Below, piece by piece: positions 28,389 to 41,619 of a DNA stretch of 64,000 bases. A program made the position numbers and the translations under genes. Within the stretch, counting starts at the first letter, position 1, and every line of letters begins with the position of its first letter. Source of the DNA: Paracoccaceae bacterium. GTDB taxonomy: Bacteria; Pseudomonadota; Alphaproteobacteria; Rhodobacterales; Rhodobacteraceae. Where the stretch lies: assembly GCA_021741245.1 (NCBI GenBank), contig JAIOYF010000011.1:1-64000 (forward strand), given 5' to 3'. The notes under the pieces are model-generated. The model did no database searches, was not told the origin of the DNA, and saw only the letters and a list, made by a program, of their open reading frames with translations.

Positions 28389-28464
28389 GGGCCGGTAGCT
28401 CAGTTGGTAGAGCAGCTGACTTTTAATCAGCGGGTCATGGGTTCGAATCCCGTCCGGCTCACCA
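28389..28464 (+). tRNA. tRNA-Lys(TTT)
   Basis: A 76-nt cloverleaf. The acceptor stem GGGCCGG pairs with CCGGCTC (one G-T), D-arm GCTCAGTTGGTAGAGC, anticodon loop CTTTTAA (TTT), T-arm GGTTCGAATCC, and encoded CCA end. Anticodon TTT reads lysine codons. Confidence 0.97.
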
Positions 28465-28610: not shown

Positions 28611-28657
28611 TGGTGATCCCGACAGGACTTGAACCTGTAACCTGCCCCTTAGGAGGG
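28611..28657 (-). pseudogene. Displaced 3' half of tRNA-Arg
   Basis: Read on the minus strand this is a tRNA from the anticodon loop (CCTCCTAAG) through T-arm and acceptor 3' strand to CCA, differing from the corresponding part of the tRNA-Arg at 41543-41589 at five positions. It has no 5' half. It is the chromosomal tRNA end pushed away when the island inserted. Confidence 0.88.
28639..28657. repeat. Left attachment site core (attL/attR)
   Basis: AACCTGCCCCTTAGGAGGG, 19 bp, identical to 41571-41589. It lies in the anticodon-stem-loop part of tRNA-Arg, the usual crossover place for tyrosine integrases. The integrase stop codon lies only 3 bp beyond it. Confidence 0.9.
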
Positions 28658-28659
28658 AT

Positions 28660-29766
28660 TCATTCATTTTCCTGATCTTTATTTGTTTTCTTGTGCTTGG
28701 GCTTTTCGTCAGGGGTCGGCTGTACATAGTTTGTACGAAACCGCTCCCTGACATCGGCCTCGTCAGTCTCTGCATGGGCGTAAATCCGCATCGGCAAAGT
28801 GGCGTCTGACCACCGTCCCGCCTTAGCCGCGGTGACCGGATCGACGCCTTGGCGCACCACCAGTTCGGTATAAAAGCTGTGTCGTCCTGCGCGGTGCGCG
28901 GATAGATACGGGATGCCCGCGTCTTTGCAGATGGTCTTCCAGCGGTTGTTGTAGCCGGTCGGGCTGCCATAGCCGAAGACGCGCGGTGACAGGAGCCTCC
29001 CGGTCTTGAGGTTCTTGGGCCGCTTGGGCTTCAGCGCTATCAACTCTGCCATCATCTGCGGCGAAACGGTGATCCAACCCTCGGGGTGGCCTTTCTGGGC
29101 CTTGATCTTGACCTCGCATGTGGCTGGCCTCAGATCGCGCGGTTCAATGGATACCGCCTGATCGATCCGCGCTGCCGTTTCGAACATGAACCGTAGCATC
29201 GCGGCGTTATAAGGGTCGGCGGCGGCACAGAACGCCTCGATCCAAGTGCGGGTTGCAGGGGTGCGTTCGATCCGGCTGGTTTTGCCGCGCCGCTCGTCCT
29301 GCGCGATCCGCTCGAACTTGTCATAGCGCTTGACCGTCAGATGCGGCGTTCCTTTGTGCTCATGCGCATGGTTGATGACCGCCCGCGCCGGGGTCACGAT
29401 CTCGCGCCACCAGGTATCGGTGCAGCCTCTCGGCTTCATCTTGGGGCCAAGGCTTTTCAGCAGCGCCCCGGTGATGGCCCCCAGCGGCATATCCCCGATC
29501 TGATCGAGGATCGGCAGAAGCTGCCTCGCATCGTTGGGCGTTGCCGGGTAGAAATTGACAGCATCCGCGAACCGCAAGCTGTGCTCTTCCCCGACAAGGT
29601 GCCTGCGGATCTGCAGCTGCGTTTCGTCGTTTATCCAGTCCCGCGCGCCAGCTTCAGTAGTCGCTCGCGTGCTTTGGCGGTATGGACCGGCGATCGGCCT
29701 GCCATTGTATTCGACCCAGCCCTTGACCCAGAAGACGGAGCCACGCTTGTAAATTTCGAGCGGCAT
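28660..29766 (-). CDS. Tyrosine-type site-specific integrase
   Basis: 368 aa. Catalyses insertion and excision of the island. The C-terminal catalytic domain has Arg200 in MFETAARIDQAV, Arg295 with His296 in HRAGRHSFYTEL, Trp319 in AGRWSDATL and the nucleophile Tyr329 in RIYAHAETDE. The N-terminal part contains an Arm-type beta segment (VFWVKGWVEYNGRP). The gene ends at the left att core and its 3' end contains a candidate arm-type site. Confidence 0.93.
   Translation of the reverse strand: MPLEIYKRGSVFWVKGWVEYNGRPIAGPYRQSTRATTEAGARDWINDETQLQIRRHLVGEEHSLRFADAVNFYPATPNDARQLLPILDQIGDMPLGAITGALLKSLGPKMKPRGCTDTWWREIVTPARAVINHAHEHKGTPHLTVKRYDKFERIAQDERRGKTSRIERTPATRTWIEAFCAAADPYNAAMLRFMFETAARIDQAVSIEPRDLRPATCEVKIKAQKGHPEGWITVSPQMMAELIALKPKRPKNLKTGRLLSPRVFGYGSPTGYNNRWKTICKDAGIPYLSAHRAGRHSFYTELVVRQGVDPVTAAKAGRWSDATLPMRIYAHAETDEADVRERFRTNYVQPTPDEKPKHKKTNKDQENE
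28721..28736. promoter_or_regulatory. Candidate left arm-type integrase site
   Basis: TGTACATAGTTTGTAC, 64 bp inside the left core and within the integrase reading frame. The same TGTACAnnnTTTGTAC layout is found at 41424-41439 near the right core, and nowhere else was it noticed. Confidence 0.5.
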
Positions 29767-31410: not shown

Positions 31411-31686
31411 ATGATAAAGACGTTCACGAATAAGCAGCTGAAGGCCCTCTGGGAAACGGGGAAGTCCAAGATCGACGCACGGTTTCACAAGCGCATCCTG
31501 CGGCGGCTCGACGCCCTTGACGCCGCCACCGCGCCCGAGGACATGAACCTTCCCGGTTTCGACTTTCATGCACTGCGAGGTCACAACCCGACGCGTTACA
31601 CGGTCCATGTAAACGGGCCTTGGTGCATTACGTTCGAGTTCAGAGATGGCGATGCCTATGTGCTGGATTTCGAGCAATACCATTAG
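31411..31686 (+). CDS. higB: HigB-type toxin (RelE superfamily)
   Basis: 91 aa. MIKTFTNKQLKALWETGKSKIDARFHKRILRRLDALDAA and FDFHALRGHNPTRYTVHVNGPWCITFEFRDGDAYVLDFEQYH match the plasmid-maintenance (RelE/HigB) ribonuclease toxins, which cut ribosome-bound mRNA. Toxin gene first, antitoxin 9 bp later, the usual higBA order. Confidence 0.93.
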   Translation: MIKTFTNKQLKALWETGKSKIDARFHKRILRRLDALDAATAPEDMNLPGFDFHALRGHNPTRYTVHVNGPWCITFEFRDGDAYVLDFEQYH

Positions 31687-31695
31687 GAGGCACGC

Positions 31696-31995
31696 ATGAG
31701 CCGCAACCCCGACCGCTGCCCGACGCATCCGGGCGAATTGCTCCGGGAGGACGTGATCCCCGAGACCGGCAAATCCAAGGCAGAGATCGCGCGGATGCTG
31801 GGTATCTCGCGCCAACATCTGCACGACGTCTTGGCGGAGCGCAAACCGGTTAGCCCAGAGGTCGCCGTGCGCCTGGCAAAGCTGTTCGGGAACGAGCCCC
31901 TTTTCTGGATCAGGATGCAAGGTGCCTATGACGCTTGGCACGCATCTCGGGAAGTGGATGTTTCCGGCGTGCCTACGCTGTTTGCTGCGGAATAG
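31696..31995 (+). CDS. higA: HigA-type antitoxin
   Basis: 99 aa. RCPTHPGELLREDVIPETGKSKAEIARMLGISRQHLHDVLAERKPVSPEVAVRLAKLFGNEPLFWIRMQGAYDAWHA is the HigA (VapI) HTH antitoxin family. An AGGAGG-like site precedes the ATG. Likely autorepresses the operon through the repeats at 31361-31391. Confidence 0.94.
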   Translation: MSRNPDRCPTHPGELLREDVIPETGKSKAEIARMLGISRQHLHDVLAERKPVSPEVAVRLAKLFGNEPLFWIRMQGAYDAWHASREVDVSGVPTLFAAE

Positions 31996-32202
31996 CTGGG
32001 GCAAACCGACTGGCTTTTGCAGTTCACATGTGGCGCCACCGGCCGATACCAGTCAATCGTGAAAGATGCAGCAGATGACTGGTCTTAGGCCTAGGGCCAC
32101 ATGCAACAGAAAAGCCTATTCTCTTGGAGAGTGGGCGAGATCTATGCAATTAGTCAAATATGCTGGGCGATGGAACAAGACCCAGCTCAGAGGGCACGAG
32201 GC
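31996..32202. other. Leader of the NTPase gene
   Basis: About 200 bp between higA and the chosen NTPase start. In-frame ATGs exist at 32101 and 32170, neither with a good ribosome site. No terminator hairpin or clear promoter was recognised. Confidence 0.35.
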
Positions 32203-35200
32203 ATGGGTCACAACTACAAACCAACCGCAATCACAAGAGTTGGCTTCGAGTACCAGGACTTGGTTGCCGCAGAGACACTGCTTGACTTCTATCGTAACCC
32301 CAAAAAATATTCGTGGGTGCAGGTAGAAGCATCCGACCCGTCATTCCGGGCCGTAGATGACGTGGTTGCGTGCCTAGCTGACGGGCGGTTTGAAGTCACA
32401 CAAGTCAAATTTGCTGTCGATCCGGAAAACCTAAAGACAGCCCTTGATTGGGAATGGCTCTTAGGCGCGAAGCCCAAAGGAAAGTCTTTTCTTCAGCACT
32501 GGGCTGTGCCGGTCTTGAAGATTTTGGATGATGGTTTTCTGGCGAATGCTCGTCTGATGACGGATCGAAAACCGGATTCGGAATTTTCTAAATCTTTGAA
32601 GGGCAGCCGCGTAAATTATTCAAAAATCCCTTTGCCAATTCTCACGAGGATTATTGCACAGCTTGGATCGGCTGCGGCCGCTCAAAAGTTCTTTAAAAAC
32701 TTTGACTTCATTCACTCTCAGCCCATACTTGAGGATCTTGAAGCTACTCTCTGGGCGCGTATAGCATCTGACACGGACAGCGCTGGCTGGGCTTTATTCC
32801 AGAAACAGCTCCAACTTTGGGCGACCCAAAAAAATCGGCCTGGCCCTGACGGGCGTATTCGCTATGTCCATCTCCAGCAAGCTTTTTCCCCCGAAAGAGC
32901 CAGGCCCCTTCCCCAAGATTTCACGGTGCCAGAAGACTACCGCGTGCCGGACAAGAGCTTTTCCGACGATTTCTTTTCGCGGGTACTCAATGACGATGGC
33001 GTCACGGTTCTTTGGGCCCCTCCAGGGCGTGGGAAAAGTACTTTTCTCAGCCACTTTAAGTCGAAACTCGATGCTAAAAAGGTTGTGTGTATACGGCACC
33101 ACTACTTCCTTAGCCTCGATGACAGATCTGAGGGAAGGTTCCACGTCCAAGCTATTGCACGTTCGCTAGAAGCCCAACTTCAAGATGCGATGCCTGACTT
33201 GAGAGTGCGGAAGCATAGTACTTTGGGCGAAACGATCGAACAGGCGGCCCAGAAAGTCGTCGCGGAAGGAAGGCGCCTTATCGTGATCATCGACGGACTC
33301 GATCACGTCTGGCGAGAAGGCCATGATCGCGAGCACGCCGAAGAACTCTTTAACGCGCTTATCCCCGTCGTACCGGGTACCCATCTGGTAGTTGGGACGC
33401 AGAAGATTGCGGAAAAGCACCTCCCAACAAGGATGCTGGTTGCAGCGCCGATGGAAGGCTGGGTCGAACTTCCTCTCATGAACCGCGCTGCTGTTGAAGG
33501 CTGGATTGCATCACAACACCGCGCTGGAAGGCTAAATCTCTTCCACTGGCCTCACCAATCGAAAGCGAAAGCGCTCGCTGCGGTTTCTGATGCTTTCTTC
33601 GACATCTCCAAAGGCTTGCCTCTGCATATGATTTATTCATTCGAGGCCGTTGCCCGTGTCGGCAATGAAGTGACGCCAGACCTAGTTCGAGCGCAGCCGG
33701 CCTGCCCCAGTGGAGACATCCGGGATTACTACGCAGGGTTTATGTTGCAGCTTTCTCCACGCGGGAAGGCAATTCTGCACGTCCTAGCTGGTCTCGACTT
33801 CAGTCCGCCGCCATTTGCTCTCAACAACTGCTTCGGCGTGGACGATCAGAGCATCTTGGGGCTGGCGGAGATCGGTCATCTCCTCGACTTTCGAGAGATG
33901 GAAGTGCGCCCATTTCACGGCAGCTTGTTCGCCTTTCTTCGAAATGATCCCATTCACCATTCAACTTTCATGGCCAACAGCGCGCCGACTTTGGCATGGC
34001 TGGAAACAGAAGCGCCTCCCTACTGGCGAGAGGCGTGGCTATGGATCACTCAGGCAACACGCGGGAACGCACAGAACCTAATCAAGGGACCTTCCCGTGA
34101 GTGGGCGTTGTCCTTCGTCACTGCGGGGTACCCGATCGACCGCTTGATCAATGTATTGAATCATGCCGAACAGGCCGCTTTCGAAGTATTTGATTTGGCA
34201 AGCGTCGCGCGTCACCGACTTGTAAAGATTCGTGCGATAAATGCCGATGAGCTGCAGCACGATGAACTAGCCCAAGTTTGGTATGTTGCCGCCGCTTTAA
34301 GTGGCGACATTTTTGTCCCGGCCGTCCTTCGCGCCGACTTGGGTAACTTGCCTCCCTCGCTAATCCCGGCGCTCGTCCAGATGACCGATGAGAGTCAGCG
34401 AGATGCGCTTGTCGACCGAGCTGTTGAGGAGCTTAACGGACGCATCACCCAGAACCGTCACAACGAATATATCAGCAATGACCAGCAAGGCGAACTTGCT
34501 CGGGCTGTGGTTTCTGTCGTTGCTACAAGCAAGAAGAACGAGGTTGCTCGGGTGCTGCGTTTCGCGCGCGGTTCTGGTCAAGCGGACCCTATCGTTGCCG
34601 CTTTCGCTCAAAGCGCGCGCCTTGTCGGAAATGTTAGTTCCGTCTTCCAAGCGGGCAAGAGCTTCACGGGGGGCGAATTCGACCAGGAACTGTTCGTTTG
34701 CCTATGTCTCGAAGGGCTCTCACCTGCGAGCCAAACTCCGTTAATGGCAGGAAAGCACCCCGCTATTCGCTGCTTGGGGATTGCCAAGGGCGACGCGGTA
34801 AAAGGCAGCAGCTCAGGCAAAAACCTGTCAGCACTTTTCGCGGGCGCTGACGGCCCGGAAGATCGTCACCAGACGAATATCCGAGGGATCGTTTACAATA
34901 ATTTCATGTCCGCACTAGCGGCTGCTCTGGCGGGAAAGCCAACAGAAAGCTGGGTAAAGATCCCGGATCATGCATCGGAAAGCTGGCTCGCGGGCGCAGT
35001 ACGTGCCTTTGAAAAACTCGCACGACGCATCGCCGCACACTGGGCTAACGCAAGGCATTGGCCAACTCTCGGTGACGTGTTTAGTTGGTATGATGGGCAA
35101 CCTTGCCACGAGCGAGGTTACGACGCTCAACGCTGTTTCATTGCGGTGCGCCTTGCGCTTATCGACGCCGCTTTCGACCTCTGCCTCATCGGCCGAGGGC

Positions 35201-36555
35201 TAGATGCTGCATATCAGATCGACGATATTGCCCTTTCTAAGGCGCGGACATCGCCTTTCTGGCTAGACGAACTTTGGCTGGAAAAGCTCACAACACGCCG
35301 GGTATCATTGCATGACCCAGCTAGCGCTGAGAGGTTCATTGCGACTTACATGGACGAACTCAGGCAGTCCGTGACTGTGTTCAACGAGCGAGCTGCTACC
35401 TTCGGCAAGCTGGCTCTTGCTGCGCACGACCACAACAAACTTCAGCTCGCAGCCCAGGCATTGAGACATGCTGTGGATTGTTTATTTGGGTATGGCTGGC
35501 GGAAGGATGCTTTTGCAGACGATGTGCTTACCGCGTTGGGAATGATGATCGAAGCTGGGGATCAGGACGCCAAGCAAACCCTCTTGGCTCTAGCTGGCGC
35601 GTTTCACCGCATCACCGACTATACCGACGGTGATGGAACGAACCATATCCGTAGCGAATATTACACTGCTGTTGCAAGGCATTATCCTGAACGCATCGCG
35701 CCCATGCTGAACGATCTAATCAGGGCTGAGGACTGGCACTATGCCGAAGGTTTGTACAAGGAGCTTCCCTCGCTCCCTTTGGCCCAGAGCGTCGAAGGCG
35801 CTGCACTTTTTTCCACTTTCATCATGCCTAGCGAACGGATCGCCGTTGAGAAAGCCAACCTAGCGTTGGACATCGCGAAGACTCTCCGCCACAAAGTCGG
35901 GCCCAACTTCGAACACGCTCGTAAGGCAGATCGATACGCCACCGAGAGTCATCAGGATTCGGAAAAGGAAAATGCAGAAGCTCCTAAACCTGACGATTTC
36001 CCCCCAGGAAAGCTTTCGGAGTTGATTGCTGAGCGTAGACGCCTGAATCTTTACGATAGCTCTAGATCGACCGTCACTGAATGGCTTAATTATTGGAATG
36101 CTAAGGGACGGGGTGTAGCGGCGCTGGCTGATTTGGAGGTTGGGCTGTCCGAACCACGACTTAACCTAGAAATCGAAAGCGGCCTCGATACCGCGGCTGA
36201 AATGGCGGCGAAGCTTCAAGGTCGCAGCGAAGCATTCAAGTGGTTGGTGCGCGCCCACATCGCGCGCTATGGCTGGCAAAAATATTTCACAAGCAAGGAC
36301 GAGGCGGAAGCTCGGCTTGGGCTTGTCGCTCGCGACTACAGGGCGCGTTGGAAGGACTTTGTCCGCGAGACCAGCAAACCCGCGCTCAACCTTCGAGAGA
36401 GTAGAAACGGATTGGTGATCGGCTTCACGCGGCTCATCTATTTCCTCATCCAGATAGGCGAGCTTGAACTCGCCAAAGCCCATACCAAAGCGCTAGTCGA
36501 CGCTTTCATGGAGGAAGTTGCGCAGCAGCCACTGGATAAACCTTCATGGTCATAG
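32203..36555 (+). CDS. Nuclease-STAND NTPase, Avs-like defence candidate
   Basis: About 1450 aa from ATG 32203 (CACGAGGC in front); a start at 32101 would add 34 residues. Residues ~15-130 resemble the Cap4/DUF4297 nuclease fold: GFEYQDLVAAETLLDF, then Glu42, Asp52-Asp53 and Gln67-Val-Lys69 in the E...D...QVK pattern of PD-(D/E)xK enzymes. A P-loop ATPase follows, with Walker A PPGRGKST (residues ~273-280) and Walker B LIVIIDGLDH (Asp364, Asp367) as in STAND/NACHT proteins. The remaining ~1000 residues are helical, repeat-like and a probable sensor. This is the layout of Avs-type antiviral NTPases, which cleave DNA upon sensing a phage protein. It overlaps its partner gene by 10 bp. Confidence 0.8.
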   Translation: MGHNYKPTAITRVGFEYQDLVAAETLLDFYRNPKKYSWVQVEASDPSFRAVDDVVACLADGRFEVTQVKFAVDPENLKTALDWEWLLGAKPKGKSFLQHWAVPVLKILDDGFLANARLMTDRKPDSEFSKSLKGSRVNYSKIPLPILTRIIAQLGSAAAAQKFFKNFDFIHSQPILEDLEATLWARIASDTDSAGWALFQKQLQLWATQKNRPGPDGRIRYVHLQQAFSPERARPLPQDFTVPEDYRVPDKSFSDDFFSRVLNDDGVTVLWAPPGRGKSTFLSHFKSKLDAKKVVCIRHHYFLSLDDRSEGRFHVQAIARSLEAQLQDAMPDLRVRKHSTLGETIEQAAQKVVAEGRRLIVIIDGLDHVWREGHDREHAEELFNALIPVVPGTHLVVGTQKIAEKHLPTRMLVAAPMEGWVELPLMNRAAVEGWIASQHRAGRLNLFHWPHQSKAKALAAVSDAFFDISKGLPLHMIYSFEAVARVGNEVTPDLVRAQPACPSGDIRDYYAGFMLQLSPRGKAILHVLAGLDFSPPPFALNNCFGVDDQSILGLAEIGHLLDFREMEVRPFHGSLFAFLRNDPIHHSTFMANSAPTLAWLETEAPPYWREAWLWITQATRGNAQNLIKGPSREWALSFVTAGYPIDRLINVLNHAEQAAFEVFDLASVARHRLVKIRAINADELQHDELAQVWYVAAALSGDIFVPAVLRADLGNLPPSLIPALVQMTDESQRDALVDRAVEELNGRITQNRHNEYISNDQQGELARAVVSVVATSKKNEVARVLRFARGSGQADPIVAAFAQSARLVGNVSSVFQAGKSFTGGEFDQELFVCLCLEGLSPASQTPLMAGKHPAIRCLGIAKGDAVKGSSSGKNLSALFAGADGPEDRHQTNIRGIVYNNFMSALAAALAGKPTESWVKIPDHASESWLAGAVRAFEKLARRIAAHWANARHWPTLGDVFSWYDGQPCHERGYDAQRCFIAVRLALIDAAFDLCLIGRGLDAAYQIDDIALSKARTSPFWLDELWLEKLTTRRVSLHDPASAERFIATYMDELRQSVTVFNERAATFGKLALAAHDHNKLQLAAQALRHAVDCLFGYGWRKDAFADDVLTALGMMIEAGDQDAKQTLLALAGAFHRITDYTDGDGTNHIRSEYYTAVARHYPERIAPMLNDLIRAEDWHYAEGLYKELPSLPLAQSVEGAALFSTFIMPSERIAVEKANLALDIAKTLRHKVGPNFEHARKADRYATESHQDSEKENAEAPKPDDFPPGKLSELIAERRRLNLYDSSRSTVTEWLNYWNAKGRGVAALADLEVGLSEPRLNLEIESGLDTAAEMAAKLQGRSEAFKWLVRAHIARYGWQKYFTSKDEAEARLGLVARDYRARWKDFVRETSKPALNLRESRNGLVIGFTRLIYFLIQIGELELAKAHTKALVDAFMEEVAQQPLDKPSWS

Positions 36556-37943
36556 CGGTGCATTCAATAGATATCCTGCTGACTCGGCTTCTTTGGCCTG
36601 TCCCCCGTGTTCGATTGGAAGCCGCGAGAGCTCTAGCGGAGCTGATCAGGGCTGGTGATCACAATGCCGCCGACCGCCTGCTGGAGTGGATCAGCCAAAA
36701 GAAGTTTGAAAGTGAGGTAATCCTTGGCCTCAATATCATTGAGGCATTTAACTTGGGAGCCCATTTCGCGTTTGATGAGGTGCGGAACTCCGTGAATGCC
36801 GCGTCACACCTATCTGACTGGCTTGTGAAGGCAAACTTTACCCAAGCCGATAGGCTCTTTCCATTCAGATACGCTTACGCTCCCCCAAAGAGAGCGGAAT
36901 TGCCGGAGGCAGTGCGCCGTTCGTTTTCGGCCTTCAATGGTGTGCCGCAGATGTTTCATTCTCACCTTTCTCATCTGGAGGAACAATCGGGACTGCCCTT
37001 CTGTAAGCGATGGCAACATGAGTGGGAGTGGCTCCAAGCAGGGGAGTTTCGGAGTCAGGGCAATCCTTCCTACTTCTTCCAGGGCAACCGCGAGATAACC
37101 GGGCAGTTCGACTTCGCTGATCGTGAGACCTACGTTTCGGCATATTTGCGGACGCTCTCCTTTGCCGCTTCCGAATGGGGGCTTCCTCATTCTATAGCCG
37201 AGCAACATTCGCGTGCGGCTCTAACTTTGAATCGCGGCCTCGCCGGGGTTGCGCCAGTGGAGCGACCCGGATGGTCGGATGGCATTCTGCTCGGCGAGCG
37301 TGACCCCAAGTCGGTGGCATCATCCATTTGGGCTGCGGCTTCTTCAAGTGCCGCTCCGGGTCAAATGCTCACGGCTCTACGCGCCGTCGAGGTGGGCGAA
37401 ACCGGCTATGCGGTGGTCGAGTTTGATGTTGTAACCGGCAGCGCCGCTGCATTAGCAAGTTCAGATGAGCCTGATGATTGTCGATGCTCTTTTCTGGCTA
37501 ACCCTGCTCGCTACGAAGGCGGCTTCTATTCCAGTCCAGATATCGGTTTCAAACCAAAACCAAGAAGGCTTTGCGGCAATGCCATGGCGCTTGATGTTGG
37601 GCGCGCTTTGGTGGACCTCGTTCCGCATGTGCACCTACCTTCGCCTCACGCGGATCAGCCACGATCGGAGGTTGTCTGCCTTGAATGCGGAATAGAGATG
37701 CAGGTTGGTGGATCACCTATCGGCTTCTGGGAGCACTGGTATAGCGATTGGGAGCCCGCCTGTTCTCGTGAAGCGCATAATCTAGTTGGTTACAAGACCA
37801 CTGTGAAACGTGATTTCATCGAGGCTTTTTGCGAACGAAATTCTCTCAAGGCCGCTGTATGGTGCAGCGTGAAGTCAGGCACACGGCAATACCGCTACAC
37901 AGAGTTTCAGGATCGGGAAGAAAAATTCTGGATCGACGCCTAA
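36546..37943 (+). CDS. Unknown partner protein of the STAND NTPase
   Basis: 465 aa, ATG overlapping the NTPase gene by 10 bp, so coupled translation is expected. The N terminus (ILLTRLLWPVPRVRLEAARALAELIRAGDHNAADRLLEWISQKKFESEVILGLNIIEAF) looks like HEAT repeats. The middle is Trp/Phe rich. Near the C terminus there is a CLEC pair (EVVCLECGIEM) and PACSREAHN, which could bind zinc. No known family was recognised. It may be a target-recognition or regulatory subunit; that is inferred from coupling only. Confidence 0.75.
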   Translation: MVIAVHSIDILLTRLLWPVPRVRLEAARALAELIRAGDHNAADRLLEWISQKKFESEVILGLNIIEAFNLGAHFAFDEVRNSVNAASHLSDWLVKANFTQADRLFPFRYAYAPPKRAELPEAVRRSFSAFNGVPQMFHSHLSHLEEQSGLPFCKRWQHEWEWLQAGEFRSQGNPSYFFQGNREITGQFDFADRETYVSAYLRTLSFAASEWGLPHSIAEQHSRAALTLNRGLAGVAPVERPGWSDGILLGERDPKSVASSIWAAASSSAAPGQMLTALRAVEVGETGYAVVEFDVVTGSAAALASSDEPDDCRCSFLANPARYEGGFYSSPDIGFKPKPRRLCGNAMALDVGRALVDLVPHVHLPSPHADQPRSEVVCLECGIEMQVGGSPIGFWEHWYSDWEPACSREAHNLVGYKTTVKRDFIEAFCERNSLKAAVWCSVKSGTRQYRYTEFQDREEKFWIDA

Positions 37944-38150
37944 TTTAGAGGAATTTTCCCTTAACCGGCCATTCGCACGTACTGCAGCTTTCCGCCCTTT
38001 GTGACGTTGGTCTCTCAGCGGAACGCTGCAGGAACCATGAATTTAGGGCGCAAGCCCTCGACCTGATTTCTATAGCTTAGGGACTATTTTGTAGTTTTAT
38101 AGGCCCTGTACTATATTGACAAAATATCGCCGCTGGGCTATTAAAGTGCC
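37944..38150 (+). promoter_or_regulatory. hipBA promoter region
   Basis: AT-rich gap before hipB. TTGACA at 38116-38121, a 17-bp spacer and TATTAA at 38139-38144 make a good sigma-70-type promoter. The hipB ATG is only 7 bp after the -10 box, so the mRNA may be leaderless. Upstream words such as TATAG, CTATA, GGGACTA and TAGGCCC form imperfect inverted repeats (38070-38115), likely HipB operators. Confidence 0.6.
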
Positions 38151-38399
38151 ATGGACACCTTGCCCGCATACCCTATTCGAAGCCTCCGACAGGCTGGGGC
38201 CGTGCTGCGGGCGCGGCGAGCGGCGCACAAGATCAGCCAGATGCAGCTTGGCGAGATGACAGGCACCGCCCAATCCACCATTTCCGACATCGAAAACGGA
38301 GTCGTGTCCGTCAGCCTCGATGTCTACCTGCGCCTTCTTGAGGCCCTTGGTGCAGAACTGTCCGCGACGGATCGTATAGCCGACCCGGGGCAGCACTAA
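38151..38399 (+). CDS. hipB: HipB-type antitoxin
   Basis: 82 aa. XRE-type HTH: SLRQAGAVLRARRAAHKISQMQLGEMTGTAQSTISDIENGVVSVSLDVYLRLLEALGAEL. It neutralises HipA and represses the operon. The gene is followed after 1 bp by hipA. No ribosome site is seen, in agreement with a leaderless start. Confidence 0.93.
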   Translation: MDTLPAYPIRSLRQAGAVLRARRAAHKISQMQLGEMTGTAQSTISDIENGVVSVSLDVYLRLLEALGAELSATDRIADPGQH

Positions 38400-38400
38400 A

Positions 38401-39726
38401 ATGGCACGGATCGCCCGTGCTGGTCGCCGCACACGCCAAAGCAAGACAGCCGTCTGGCATGAAAGGGCGAGGGTGGGCACGCTGACCCGCGCAACGGATG
38501 GCGCCATCGCATTCACCTATGATCCTGGCTGGCTCGCATCCGAAGCCGCTTTTCCGGTTGCCAGCGCCCTGCCGCTGTCCAAGCTCAAATGGCAGGGCGA
38601 TCCGGTTGTCGCCGCCTTCGACAACCTCTTGCCCGATGCCGAAGGCGAGCTGCGCGAAAAGATCGCCGCGCGCGTCGGGGCGCAGGGCAAGGATATGTTC
38701 TCTCTGTTGTCTGTGCTGGGGCGCGACTGTGTCGGCGCGCTGCAATTCCTGCCAGTGGACGAGGCACCGTCCGAGCAGGACATGCACTATCGCGTCATTT
38801 CGGAAGAGGAGATGGTCGCCGACCTGAAAAACCTCGCCGCCGCGCCGCTCGCCCTCGGTGAAGATGAGGATTTCCGGATTTCCATCGCAGGCGCGCAGGA
38901 GAAGACGGCCTATCTGCGTATCGACGGACAATGGGCCAAGCCGCGCGGCATCACGCCGACCAGCCATATCTTCAAGACGCCGATGGGCATCCTGCCCGGC
39001 CCGGATCAGATTGACCTGAGCGACAGTGTCGAGAACGAATTGTTCTGCATGGCACTGGCCCACGAAATCGGGCTGCCTGCCGCGCATGTCGAGAAGGTCA
39101 CCCTTCCGGGGCAGGTGGTGCTGTCGGTTGAACGGTTCGACCGGGTCTGGCAGGGCGACACCCTGAAACGCTTGCCGCAGGAAGACATTTGCCAGTCGTT
39201 GGGCTACCCCTCGGCGATGAAATACCAGAAGCTTGGTGGCCCCGGCATCGCGGAGATCATGGAGCTTCTGCGAGAATCCGATACGCCGATAGAAGATCGG
39301 GAGACGTTCTTTCAGGCGCAGATACTCTTTTTCCTGATCGGCGCGTCGGATGGGCATGCCAAGAATTTCAGCCTGCGTCTTGGGCGTCGCGGACGGTTCA
39401 GGCTCGCACCGCTCTATGACATCTTGAGCATTGCCCCAGTCGTGCGCGCCGGACGCTTGCAGCGGAAGCGCTACCGCCTCGCCATGTCGATCGATGGCCA
39501 TTACGGCATCGACGAGATCGTGCCACGCCACTTCGAGGCCGAGGGGCGCGCTGTAGGCCTGCCCAAGGGCCGCGCTTTGGAGCTGTTGCAGGACATGACG
39601 GATCGGCTGGGCCCTGCGCTGGAGCGCACGCTTCTGGCGGTGGGCGATCAGGTCCCGGAGGCGGTCAGCGAACCGATCGCAAACGATGCGATGCAGCGGG
39701 CGGGGCAGATGCAGGACCTACTTTAG
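38401..39726 (+). CDS. hipA: HipA-type serine/threonine kinase toxin
   Basis: 441 aa, full length. N-terminal subdomain with GTLTRATDGAIAFTYDPGWLASEAAFPVASALPL, the kinase part with FRISIAGAQEKTAYLR, and the catalytic loop FFLIGASDGHAKNFSLRL. HipA phosphorylates glutamyl-tRNA synthetase in E. coli, causing growth arrest; the target here is unknown. It converges with the MobC-like gene (4-bp overlap). Confidence 0.95.
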   Translation: MARIARAGRRTRQSKTAVWHERARVGTLTRATDGAIAFTYDPGWLASEAAFPVASALPLSKLKWQGDPVVAAFDNLLPDAEGELREKIAARVGAQGKDMFSLLSVLGRDCVGALQFLPVDEAPSEQDMHYRVISEEEMVADLKNLAAAPLALGEDEDFRISIAGAQEKTAYLRIDGQWAKPRGITPTSHIFKTPMGILPGPDQIDLSDSVENELFCMALAHEIGLPAAHVEKVTLPGQVVLSVERFDRVWQGDTLKRLPQEDICQSLGYPSAMKYQKLGGPGIAEIMELLRESDTPIEDRETFFQAQILFFLIGASDGHAKNFSLRLGRRGRFRLAPLYDILSIAPVVRAGRLQRKRYRLAMSIDGHYGIDEIVPRHFEAEGRAVGLPKGRALELLQDMTDRLGPALERTLLAVGDQVPEAVSEPIANDAMQRAGQMQDLL

Positions 39727-40298
39727 GGCTCCGGTACCTTTGCATCCAACCCTGCCAGCGCCTTGTCGACCTCGCGCGTCATCGCGGCCTGCTGTGCCTC
39801 CCACAAGATTCGGAACTCCTCGGCAAATTCGACCAAGCCCCCCGCGAAGGTGCGGATCGTGGTCATGTCGTCATCCGTGAACGGGATCGGGCGGCCGCGC
39901 AGCTTCGCCTCGTTAAGCTTGCGGGCGATGTGGTTGACTGCGGCACCATCCGTCGCGACCTGTGTGCCCCAGGCTTGCAGATGGTCGAGAACGACTGCGT
40001 CTGCCGGACGCAGCAGGATGTCGGCCGAACCCATTAGGCGGCGCAGGGCGGCGGGTTGGTCGGTGATGCCGCGACGTGCCAGCGCGGCCTGAAGCGCCGC
40101 AAGCTGGCGCGCGCTCAGGCGCATGCTGATCGTCGTTGTCGGGCCAGGGCGCGCGCCGTCGGCCCGGCTCAGCGTGTTGTAGATCGTCCGGGTCGAGACG
40201 CCGAACCGGTGGGCCAGCAGAGCCGCAGGGGTGCCCCCGGCGCGCGCCTTGACGATCTGGCGGCGTTCTTCGTCGGTCAGTTTGCGATGGTGGCGCAT
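39723..40298 (-). CDS. HTH / MobC-like mobilisation protein
   Basis: 191 aa. Residues 1-50 form a resolvase-type HTH (LTDEERRQIVKARAGGTPAALLAHRFGVSTRTIYNTLSR). Residues ~60-150 contain ribbon-helix-helix-like ISMRLSARQLAALQAALARRGITDQPAALRRLM and the MobC-like AAVNHIARKLNEAKLRG. MobC proteins help relaxases at oriT, but no relaxase is encoded on the island, so it could be a mobilisable element using a helper in trans. Confidence 0.65.
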   Translation of the reverse strand: MRHHRKLTDEERRQIVKARAGGTPAALLAHRFGVSTRTIYNTLSRADGARPGPTTTISMRLSARQLAALQAALARRGITDQPAALRRLMGSADILLRPADAVVLDHLQAWGTQVATDGAAVNHIARKLNEAKLRGRPIPFTDDDMTTIRTFAGGLVEFAEEFRILWEAQQAAMTREVDKALAGLDAKVPEP

Positions 40299-40559: not shown

Positions 40560-41387
40560 TCATGCCGCGAGCCCCGCCGCGCGCAGCTGGCCATCGGTCA
40601 CCAGCCCGGCCGCTACCAGCGCTGTGACCTGCGGGGCGGTGATGTGTTTGCACATCGGGCTGCGGTCGCGCACCCACGCGGCCAGCCGTGCGTGGTGGTC
40701 GGCTGCGAGGGCAGTCTGCGTCTGCCGCTCCTCGGCCATCGCCTCAAGGAACCTTTGCCAGCGACGGTCAGCGAACCAATTATCCGAGAAACAGACCTTT
40801 GACCGGGTAAACCCCTCGCTCTCGGTGGCGTAGTCCTGCACGGCGCGCAGCAGGTCGTCGGAGTCTATCCCCTCCTTCACGGCCTCTGCGATCCGGGCAA
40901 GGCACGCAGCTTTGCCACGCCGGCGATCCCTCGGGTAGGCCGTCCAGATCTTCTCAAATCTTTCATCCTCCACCGCCGCCACCGCTTCCGCACGCTTGCG
41001 CGTAGGTGGTTTATGGATGGTTTTAGGGTGGTTTGGGGTCCACCCTGGACCCCGTACCCCGTCCACTGTGGACCCCGTCCCATCATCGGGTTCCGACATC
41101 GATTCCAGCGTCATCACGCGGGCCAACACGATGCGGTAGATCACGGTAAATCCGTTCTTGCAGGGGCGGCGTCCGGTCTCGATCAGGATGCCCTCTTTCA
41201 GGAAATCGCTGATCGTTCGCTTCACGGTGCTTTCGCCCAGCTCGGTGTGCCGCTGGATCGTGCCTTTGGAGCACCAGATGCCCGAGCCGTCATCGCTCGC
41301 CTTGTCGGCCAGGAACATGATGATCTGCTTGCGCGCGGCGCTGCCGAAGCGGCGGTCGGCGCATTCATTCGCGACGCGCCAACTCAT
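40560..41387 (-). CDS. HTH replication-type protein
   Basis: 275 aa. The N terminus (ADRRFGSAARKQIIMFLADKASDDGSGIWCSKGTIQRHTELGESTVKRTISDFLKEGILIETGRR) is the helix-turn-helix found in phage and plasmid replication initiators. The second half (ERFEKIWTAYPRDRRRGKAACLARIAEAVKEGI ... SDNWFADRRWQRFLE) resembles the conserved tail of such proteins. It is the gene nearest to the tRNA-Arg end of the island. Confidence 0.7.
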   Translation of the reverse strand: MSWRVANECADRRFGSAARKQIIMFLADKASDDGSGIWCSKGTIQRHTELGESTVKRTISDFLKEGILIETGRRPCKNGFTVIYRIVLARVMTLESMSEPDDGTGSTVDGVRGPGWTPNHPKTIHKPPTRKRAEAVAAVEDERFEKIWTAYPRDRRRGKAACLARIAEAVKEGIDSDDLLRAVQDYATESEGFTRSKVCFSDNWFADRRWQRFLEAMAEERQTQTALAADHHARLAAWVRDRSPMCKHITAPQVTALVAAGLVTDGQLRAAGLAA

Positions 41388-41542: not shown

Positions 41543-41619
41543 TGGTGACCCCGGCAGGATTCGAACCTGCAACCTGCCCCTTAGGAGGGGGCTGCTCTAT
41601 CCAGTTGAGCCACGGGACC
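41543..41619 (-). tRNA. tRNA-Arg(CCT), island-completed
   Basis: 77-nt cloverleaf on the minus strand: acceptor GGTCCCG, D-arm GGCTCAACTGGATAGAGC, anticodon loop CTCCTAA (CCT), T-arm GCAGGTTCGAATCCTGC, CCA encoded. The 3' half from the anticodon loop onward was supplied by the island. The acceptor contains a T3-G70 wobble that the displaced half at 28611-28657 would pair as T-A. Confidence 0.95.
41571..41589. repeat. Right attachment site core
   Basis: Identical 19 bp to 28639-28657. It sits in the anticodon loop and 3' anticodon stem of the intact tRNA-Arg. Confidence 0.9.

What the first reader, a model, noticed from the sequence alone, without database searches (positions are those of the whole stretch)
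32203..37943. Two-gene nuclease-STAND NTPase defence candidate with an unrecognised coupled partner
The island carries a very large protein with an N-terminal Cap4/DUF4297-like PD-(D/E)xK nuclease pattern (Glu42, Asp52-53, Gln67-Val-Lys69), a STAND/NACHT P-loop ATPase (GRGKST, LIVIIDGLDH) and ~1000 residues of helical repeats. A 465-aa HEAT-like protein with possible zinc-binding cysteines follows with a 10-bp overlap. Avs-type antiviral NTPases are generally known as single large genes, so a coupled second gene suggests a distinct subtype in which sensing or regulation is on a separate subunit. It sits between two toxin-antitoxin modules on a tRNA-integrated island, a classic defence-island context.
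Basis: partly seen in the sequence, partly recalled or inferred. Interest (0 to 1): 0.85.

Follow-up and report, generated by a model that had tools for sequence, protein, structure and literature searches.

The report
Split Avs3-like phage-sensing nuclease pair
Two overlapping genes in this bacterium appear to encode one antiviral alarm protein made in two pieces, a DNA-cutting switch and its probable detector end, and related bacteria carry the same two pieces either apart or fused into one gene.

Summary
Gene A (32203-36555, 1450 aa) has a Cap4-type PD-(D/E)xK nuclease, a NACHT/STAND ATPase and helical repeats. Gene B (36546-37943, 465 aa) starts 10 bp before A stops. The partner is conserved: of 80 relatives fetched, 71 could be judged and all 71 have B, as a separate gene after A (46) or in one ORF with A's end (25). 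B is not an unrelated regulator. Its predicted fold has Avs3 as its only significant PDB match (E 9.2e-8, next other protein 0.086), and profiles place it on the Avs3 C-terminal domain; A matches Avs3's nuclease and STAND parts. So this is a split Avs3-like system, but not AVAST type 3 as NCBI models it (no NF041816 match, separate clade). Split looks ancestral, with about six fusions. The mobile unit is A+B (about 32040-37988); the flanking toxin-antitoxin genes are not part of it. The proposed zinc cysteines are not conserved, and Avs systems are not generally single genes (Avs3a/Avs3b overlap). Antiphage function and terminase sensing are inferred, not shown.

The parts
32040..37988 (+). 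transferred unit: leader of about 160 bp, gene A, gene B, short tail
   Evidence: blastn against L016, L017, L020, L004: one match of 5.94-5.96 kb each at 86-91% DNA identity, start 32028-32057, end 37987-37988, no other match in the flanks at E 1e-10
32203..36555 (+). gene A: 1450-aa nuclease-NACHT-helical repeat protein (like Avs3a without its C-terminal domain)
   Evidence: ORF, Pfam/PADLOC, profile and fold match to Avs3
32203..32892 (+). nuclease domain, residues 1-230 (E42, D52-D53, Q67-V68-K69)
   Evidence: PADLOC Effector 9e-11; D53/Q67/K69 71 of 71; predicted helix-strand-strand-strand-helix-strand order, D53 just before a strand and Q67/K69 in the next; nuclease-nuclease hhalign to Avs3a 2.2e-8
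32953..34122 (+). NACHT/STAND ATPase region, residues 251-640
   Evidence: Pfam NACHT 3.1e-8; GRGKST and DGLDHVWR; Foldseek to Avs3 and CED-4
34123..36552 (+). C-terminal helical repeat region of A
   Evidence: collinear with Avs3a in the whole-profile alignment; alone only weak, p 0.0051
36546..36555 (+). 10-bp overlap of A stop and B start (same overlap in L004, L016, L017; same position with GTG in L020)
36546..37943 (+). gene B: 465 aa, counterpart of the Avs3 C-terminal domain
   Evidence: AF2 pLDDT 91.5; Foldseek 8dgc Avs3 9.2e-8; hhalign to Avs3a C-terminal part 1.3e-5
36546..37340 (+). helical half of B, residues 1-265
37353..37940 (+). beta-rich half of B, residues 270-465, the most diverged of the four segments measured
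   Evidence: mean identity to window 19.7% against 39.0% (nuclease), 40.1% (STAND) and 30.3% (helical half) over 61 loci
28639..28657 (+). left attachment core (19 bp) inside a diverged copy of the tRNA-Arg 3' part
41571..41589 (+). right attachment core in the intact tRNA-Arg(CCT) gene (41543-41619, minus strand)
28660..29766 (-). tyrosine integrase of the island
   Evidence: Pfam Phage_integrase 3.6e-8

Best explanation
A split Avs3-like bacterial NLR. Gene A supplies the nuclease effector, the NACHT switch and the repeat arm. Gene B supplies the C-terminal recognition domain, which in Avs3 is on the same chain. The overlap couples their translation, so both chains are made together and assemble into one receptor. 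Inferred working: A-B rests in an inactive state; a conserved phage protein, by analogy with Avs3 most likely the large terminase subunit, is held by the repeats of A and by B; ATP binding then drives oligomerisation, the nuclease domains come together and cut DNA, and the infected cell dies or the infection aborts. Shown here: domains, conserved residues, a partner present in every assessable relative, fused forms, homology of both chains to consecutive parts of Avs3. Inferred: coupling, complex formation, target, oligomerisation, DNA cleavage, antiphage effect.
For: B present in 71 of 71 assessable loci of 80, 46 as a separate gene and 25 in one ORF with A's end. In 52 of 52 split loci examined (window, 5 plasmids, 46 genome loci) a possible B start (ATG, GTG or TTG) lies at or before the last base of A's stop codon. 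A and B distances correlate, r 0.938 over 40 split rows, shuffled maximum 0.163. Segment-by-segment hhalign is diagonal: nuclease-nuclease 2.2e-8, STAND-STAND 3.2e-8, repeats-repeats 0.0051, B (67-row profile) with the Avs3a C-terminal part 1.3e-5 (score 51.4; maximum 18.8 in 30 column shuffles); off-diagonal pairs 0.048 or worse. Foldseek top hits of both models are Avs3 8dgc. D53/Q67/K69 and Walker A invariant in 71 of 71. Neighbours of relatives include defence and mobility genes: GajA-type ATPases (best 3e-253), GmrSD, TIR, integrases.
Against: No function or interaction was tested. PDB sequence searches with seven queries did not list Avs3. The structural superpositions are loose (B: TM 0.41 by query, rmsd 12.4; A: TM 0.26, rmsd 30.5). 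For B the whole-profile hhalign probability is 57% and the default run aligned only 77 columns at the C-terminal end; the full-length range comes from a permissive setting in my script. With the 19-row fused alignment the B part gives only p 0.0027, and the fused-family alignment to Avs3a stops before B, at position 1499 of 1938 (position 1499 is about 40 columns into the C-terminal part). The repeat segment alone is weak. Divergence of B fits a sensor but also weak constraint. The neighbourhood scan has no control, and its ATPase models cross-match. The relatives were picked by similarity to A, best 80 of 122, so more distant forms are not counted. In two of the 71 loci B itself is broken (L031, L046), and in several A is interrupted (L023, L041, L054, L063, L083).
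Confidence: 0.76

Rival explanations
1. Same split receptor, but B recognises something other than the large terminase subunit (for instance portal, another phage protein, or a host protein that the phage disturbs).
For: The beta half of B is the most diverged segment (15.0% identity in 52 distant loci against 34.1% and 35.1% for nuclease and STAND). Related receptors use other cues: bNACHT25 needs host DnaJ (PMC12169576, passages); Avs5 responds most strongly to a phage protein called JADA (PMC12931631, passages).
Against: The nearest solved relative of both A and B is Avs3 in complex with terminase.
Confidence: 0.4
2. B is a regulator that holds A inactive, an antitoxin-like subunit, rather than the detector.
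For: Overlapping genes keep the two chains in step, as expected also for an inhibitor.
Against: B is homologous to a part of Avs3 and shares an ORF with A's end in 25 of 71 relatives, which suits a structural receptor part better than a removable inhibitor.
Confidence: 0.12
3. The split is a sequencing error or a decaying gene, the true protein being one chain.
For: Fused forms exist; B is in the -1 frame of A in 46 of 52 split loci, as a single indel would give.
Against: The split recurs in 46 genome loci of several phyla, near one place in the protein, with possible starts in the overlap; 6 of 52 have the other frame; the rooted tree puts the split state at the base. In-frame slippery heptamers occur within 90 nt before A's stop in only 2 of 52, so programmed frameshifting is not general either.
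Confidence: 0.03
4. Not antiviral: a plasmid or island maintenance system or a stress regulator.
For: The unit travels on plasmids and islands and lies between HigBA and HipBA here.
Against: Domain order and both chains match Avs3; neighbours of relatives include defence genes (no control). The TA genes are not part of the shared unit.
Confidence: 0.08

Closest known systems
AVAST type 3, Avs3a/Avs3b (SeAvs3, PDB 8dgc)
   Same: PD-(D/E)xK nuclease, STAND ATPase, repeats and C-terminal domain in the same order; best structural hit for A (E 4.5e-18) and B (E 9.2e-8); profile E 6.2e-16 for the fused family against Avs3a relatives.
   Different: C-terminal domain on its own gene; no NF041816 (Avs3a) match in this genome; no Avs3b gene found in the family's loci, although 3 of my 9 Avs3a relatives (L098, L103, L105) have none by this profile either; separate clade.
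bNACHT25/bNACHT32 (clade 6 bacterial NLR-related proteins)
   Same: N-terminal PD-(D/E)xK nuclease plus NACHT; mutation of a conserved active-site Asp48 abolishes defence (PMC12169576, passages).
   Different: NCH1 domain after NACHT; no second gene mentioned in the passages I saw; not compared by sequence here.
AVAST type 1, Avs1b
   Same: STAND region matches: PADLOC in 6 of 9 members of A1, best 3.9e-11; NCBIfam best 5.8e-12 in L059.
   Different: Only the STAND part matches; NCBI names Avs1b a protease, whereas the N-terminus here is a nuclease.
CBASS Cap4 effector and Lamassu LmuA nucleases
   Same: Same nuclease type at the N-terminus.
   Different: The CBASS effector match in A stops at residue 127 (profile position 130 of 489), so no SAVED sensor was found.

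Membership tests
AVAST type 3 (Avs3) | N-terminal PD-(D/E)xK nuclease | tested here: met
   segment hhalign 2.2e-8; invariant D53/Q67/K69
AVAST type 3 (Avs3) | central STAND ATPase | tested here: met
   Pfam NACHT 3.1e-8; segment hhalign 3.2e-8
AVAST type 3 (Avs3) | Avs3-type C-terminal domain | tested here: met
   on gene B: Foldseek 9.2e-8, hhalign 1.3e-5 (67-row profile) but 0.0027 with the 19-row one
AVAST type 3 (Avs3) | all domains in one Avs3a chain of about 2080 aa | tested here: not met
   split at 36546-36555; NF041816 model length 2083
AVAST type 3 (Avs3) | match to NCBIfam NF041816 above its cut-off | tested here: not met
   no match in the window's own genome at E 0.001 (nothing rang in its control genomes, but the same model found L098 at 1e-188 elsewhere)
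AVAST type 3 (Avs3) | companion avs3b gene | tested here: not met
   7-row Avs3b profile: no hit up to E 1 in the 81 split or fused loci held; its 7 hits are its own rows. Not decisive: 3 of 9 Avs3a relatives lack a hit too
AVAST type 3 (Avs3) | activation by phage large terminase | not testable with these tools
   needs experiment
CBASS Cap4 | Cap4 nuclease fused to SAVED | tested here: not met
   PADLOC match ends at residue 127 of A; no SAVED domain hit in A or B in Pfam
CBASS Cap4 | adjacent nucleotidyltransferase (CD-NTase) | tested here: inconclusive
   none among the ten island proteins scanned; at least 39723-40298 was not scanned
Lamassu | LmuA with an SMC-like LmuB | tested here: not met
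   only an N-terminal LmuA match; the second gene resembles the Avs3 C-terminal domain
bNACHT clade 6 | NCH1 domain after NACHT | tested here: inconclusive
   no such Pfam hit; whether the library holds an NCH1 model was not checked
STAND/NLR-type receptor | NACHT or related P-loop module between an effector and a repeat/sensor region | tested here: met

The most novel reading that the evidence does not exclude
An old, separate family of bacterial NLR-like receptors is built from two co-translated chains, effector-switch and detector, whose detector was fused back to the switch about six times. Its members recognise their own set of phage proteins through the fast-changing beta half of B, and the free subunit adds a control step (assembly or stoichiometry) that single-chain Avs proteins lack.
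Probability: 0.35. Interest if true: 0.72.

Novelty: new variant of a known kind. Interest (0 to 1): 0.56.

Why it matters
The family is widespread (122 relatives in one species-representative scan; 7 plasmid records matching A over at least 80% of its length, of 33 with any match). In the records I saw it is annotated only as 'ATP-binding protein', 'NACHT domain-containing protein', 'AAA family ATPase', 'hypothetical protein' or, for B, 'multidrug DMT transporter permease'. Nature has already separated the probable detector of an Avs3-like receptor from its switch, at about one place. That makes a standing question directly testable: which part of an Avs receptor recognises the phage protein, and whether recognition or assembly triggers oligomerisation. 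Fused copies in 4 of 5,426 E. coli genomes give a convenient second test case.

Tried and rejected
Zinc finger in B: rejected, no cysteine is shared by more than 24 of 67 sequences.

B as an Avs3b relative: rejected, hhalign E 0.22 and 0.17. One row of my first Avs3b alignment A6 (L105:9118-9798) looks by eye like an HNH nuclease gene (motif recalled) and lies about 540 nt beyond its avs3a, so the test was repeated without it. Hits of the profile to its own rows are by construction.

Programmed frameshift making an A-B fusion: not supported. In-frame slippery heptamers within 90 nt before A's stop in 2 of 52 split loci, and the frame differs in 6 of 52 (L018, L033, L059, L070, L075, L078).

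HigBA/HipBA as parts of the system: rejected, they lie outside the unit shared with L016, L017, L020 and L004.

Integration in the tRNA-Lys: rejected; the 19-bp repeat is that of tRNA-Arg(CCT).

A conserved third gene: none found among ORFs of 90 aa or more within 4 kb; the largest neighbour cluster spans 6 of 81 loci and was not identified.

Gene B in the window's class: 2 of 385 genomes, one being the own genome and the other a weak 100-residue match with a stop inside, so the system is sporadic. No match to either protein in 50,697 phage records. No viral predicted structure matches B at E 0.001.

Rows dropped: from the B alignment A3, of 71 split or fused genome loci, L031, L046 and L068 failed my length filter and L075 and L078 were left out as near copies of L059. 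For A4, 71 rows were available and L075 was left out. A7 holds 19 of 25 fused genome loci. The trees hold 79 rows of the family, 73 of them with a known state. The neighbour scan used 112 of 119 proteins that fitted the size limit, of 176 candidates, without a control; only 25 of 264 matched PADLOC families were shown. 9 of 80 loci were not assessable for B: L019, L032, L042, L051, L082, L085, L093 at contig ends, and L028 and L084, internally truncated copies of A with no B found.

Literature: Gao 2020, Gao 2022 and Kibby 2023 are not held and are only recalled. Of PMC12169576, PMC12931631, PMC9122126, PMC13236601 and PMC11249213 I saw passages only. Searches listed no paper that I could recognise as describing this split family; most subscription papers are not covered.
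Full report
OBSERVATION. Gene A is 32203-36555 (+), 1450 aa, and gene B is 36546-37943 (+), 465 aa. The ORF of A opens at 32101, but the start aligned with relatives is 32203. A carries a NACHT ATPase (Pfam 3.1e-8) and a weak Pfam Cap4 nuclease match (0.0025, below cut-off), with a stronger PADLOC match to the CBASS endonuclease effector (9e-11, residues 7-127) that 9 of 9 members of A1 share. B has no significant family match, nor have its eight relatives in A2 in Pfam.

IS THE PARTNER CONSERVED? In the plasmid collection 17 records match B, and 33 match A, 7 of these over at least 80% of A; the weakest listed matches are to the ATPase part only. In Roseibium, Cupriavidus, Klebsiella, Azonexus and Pseudomonas plasmids A and B are adjacent overlapping genes; in Serratia, another Klebsiella and Pseudoalteromonas they form a single ORF of about 1920 aa. 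A scan of species-representative genomes with the 9-row alignment A1 gave 122 relatives, of which the best 80 were kept. Of these 80, 46 have B as a separate gene after A, 25 have B in the same ORF as A's end, and 9 cannot be judged (7 at contig ends, 2 internally truncated A). So B is present in 71 of 71 assessable loci; in L031 and L046 it is broken, and in L023, L041, L054, L063 and L083 A is interrupted. In 52 of 52 split loci examined (46, the window and 5 plasmids) a possible start codon of B (ATG, GTG or TTG) lies at or before the last base of A's stop codon; B is in the -1 frame in 46 and the other frame in 6. Slippery heptamers are rare (2 of 52). The simple reading is stop-start translational coupling, which is inferred.

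A and B descend together: distance matrices correlate with r 0.938 for 40 split rows (shuffled maximum 0.163) and 0.979 for 22 fused rows (shuffled maximum 0.522). That argues against free exchange of B between systems.

WHAT IS B? The AlphaFold model of B from 67 sequences is confident (pLDDT 91.5, pTM 0.91): a helical half (1-265) and a beta-rich half (270-465). Its only PDB matches below E 0.001 are the two chains of Avs3 bound to phage terminase (8dgc; 9.2e-8 and 3.7e-7; next 0.086). The model of A residues 1-720 (pLDDT 88.6) also has Avs3 as top hit (4.5e-18; first other protein CED-4 at 6.7e-9). Both superpositions are loose (TM 0.41 and 0.26 by query length).

To locate the match I obtained an Avs3a relative (L098: NF041816 E 1e-188, below that model's cut-off; phmmer to SeAvs3 1.3e-105) and eight plasmid relatives, two of them annotated avs3a (alignment A5). 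The fused family against A5 gives E 6.2e-16 over 1350 columns, collinear, ending near the start of B at position 1499 of 1938; A's first 720 residues give 2.1e-15 over 652 columns. Cut into segments, each part matches best its own counterpart: nuclease 2.2e-8, STAND 3.2e-8, repeats 0.0051; B gives 1.3e-5 against the Avs3a C-terminal part with the 67-row profile and 0.0027 with the 19-row fused one; every other pairing is 0.048 or worse; 30 column shuffles reach at most 18.8 against a score of 51.4. With a permissive alignment setting B spans Avs3a profile positions 1540-2069 of 2102; the default run shows only 77 columns, 1982-2061, at probability 57%. Seven PDB sequence searches did not list Avs3. 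The fold match and the profile match of B do not depend on the ATPase, and agree on the same partner, which is why I accept the homology.

IS IT AVS3? Not by membership. The NCBI Avs3a model finds nothing in this genome (its control genomes gave nothing either, but the model did find L098). Two annotated Avs3 records carry avs3b overlapping the end of avs3a, and four unannotated relatives have the same arrangement; a 7-row Avs3b profile finds no gene in the 81 split or fused loci of this family. That is not decisive, since 3 of my 9 Avs3a relatives (L098, L103, L105) also lack it. B is not like Avs3b. With the nine Avs3a sequences as outgroup the 79 family rows form one clade (SH-aLRT 100) whose most parsimonious ancestral state is split, with 6 changes (unrooted count also 6, at least 5 forced by well-supported branches, shuffled mean 22). 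These are quick trees with long branches, so the rooting is provisional. Avs3a itself is single-chain, so the direction of the first change is open.

HOW IT WORKS (inferred). Avs1-Avs4 are described as having nuclease effectors that cut phage and host genomes after recognising terminase, portal or another phage protein (PMC12931631, passages). By homology, A would be effector, switch and part of the binding surface, B the end of the recognition surface. B's beta half is the most diverged segment (19.7% mean identity to the window over 61 loci, against 39.0% and 40.1% for nuclease and STAND), as expected for a detector under an arms race, though weak constraint would look the same. The nuclease residues D53, Q67, K69 are invariant in 71 sequences; in bNACHT25 mutation of a conserved active-site Asp48 abolished defence (PMC12169576, passages; its equivalence to D53 was not checked). 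That Avs3 touches terminase with its C-terminal domain is my recollection of the 8dgc paper, which is not held.

SURROUNDINGS. The island lies between a 19-bp repeat at 28639-28657 and 41571-41589, the second inside an intact tRNA-Arg(CCT) gene (41543-41619, minus), the first inside a diverged copy of its 3' part next to an integrase. Inside it are HigBA-like (31411-31995) and HipBA-like (38151-39726) genes. Four close relatives (Rhodobacter, Pseudorhodobacter, Meridianimarinicoccus, a Roseibium plasmid) share with the window only about 32040-37988, at 86-91% DNA identity, so A+B with a short leader is the mobile unit. Among 112 neighbour proteins of relatives, the PADLOC families listed are mainly the cross-matching ATPase models GajA, AriA, OLD and PtuA, each in 2-4 proteins and probably the same few (best GajA 3e-253); Pfam adds integrases (5), resolvases (2), GmrSD (2) and TIR (2), beside ordinary metabolic genes. 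There is no matched control, so this is descriptive.

NOVELTY. Neither the two-gene nor the fused form matches a model of PADLOC 2.0.0 or NCBIfam over its length. Searches of open papers listed no description that I could recognise. It is best called a new variant of a known kind: an Avs3-like receptor family, split in most of the members sampled.

Noticed in passing
window 28639-28657 and 41571-41589: 19-bp attachment repeat in tRNA-Arg(CCT); the island is about 12.9 kb and is not in the nearer tRNA-Lys (28389-28464).
   Followed up: yes
window 31411-31995 and 38151-39726: HigB/HigA-like and HipB/HipA-like modules flank the A+B unit inside the island.
   Followed up: partly
window 39723-40298 and 40560-41387 (minus): Two further island genes; the first reads like a mobilisation accessory protein (by eye, not searched), the second has only a weak HTH_36 match.
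   Followed up: no
L099, L100, L101, L102, L104, L106: Avs3-type loci are two overlapping genes (avs3a and a small avs3b); four of these six are not annotated as such.
   Followed up: partly
L107:8103-9816 (Fibrella plasmid): A free Avs3a C-terminal piece followed by avs3b, with an IS3 transposase just upstream: probably a truncated Avs3.
   Followed up: no
L011, L014 (Moraxella plasmids); L028, L084: Broken or truncated copies of gene A in which no B was found.
   Followed up: no
L059, L075 (Chloroflexi) and L078 (Micrarchaeota MAG): The 61-nt A/B junction is the same in L075 and L078 and differs from L059 by one base; the archaeal contig may be a binning contaminant.
   Followed up: no
PDB chain 9n00_A against alignment A4: A solved 1523-aa 'AAA family ATPase' (9n00, 9n01, 9yix) weakly resembles the nuclease start of A (whole-chain E 0.034); what system it is was not found out.
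   Followed up: no
L108:8016-13784 (E. coli 1517k): Fused copy in 4 of 5,426 E. coli genomes, annotated AAA family ATPase or ATP-binding protein.
   Followed up: partly
plasmid hits H3-H6, H8, H9, H16: Relatives of gene B are annotated 'multidrug DMT transporter permease', which the predicted fold of B does not suggest.
   Followed up: yes
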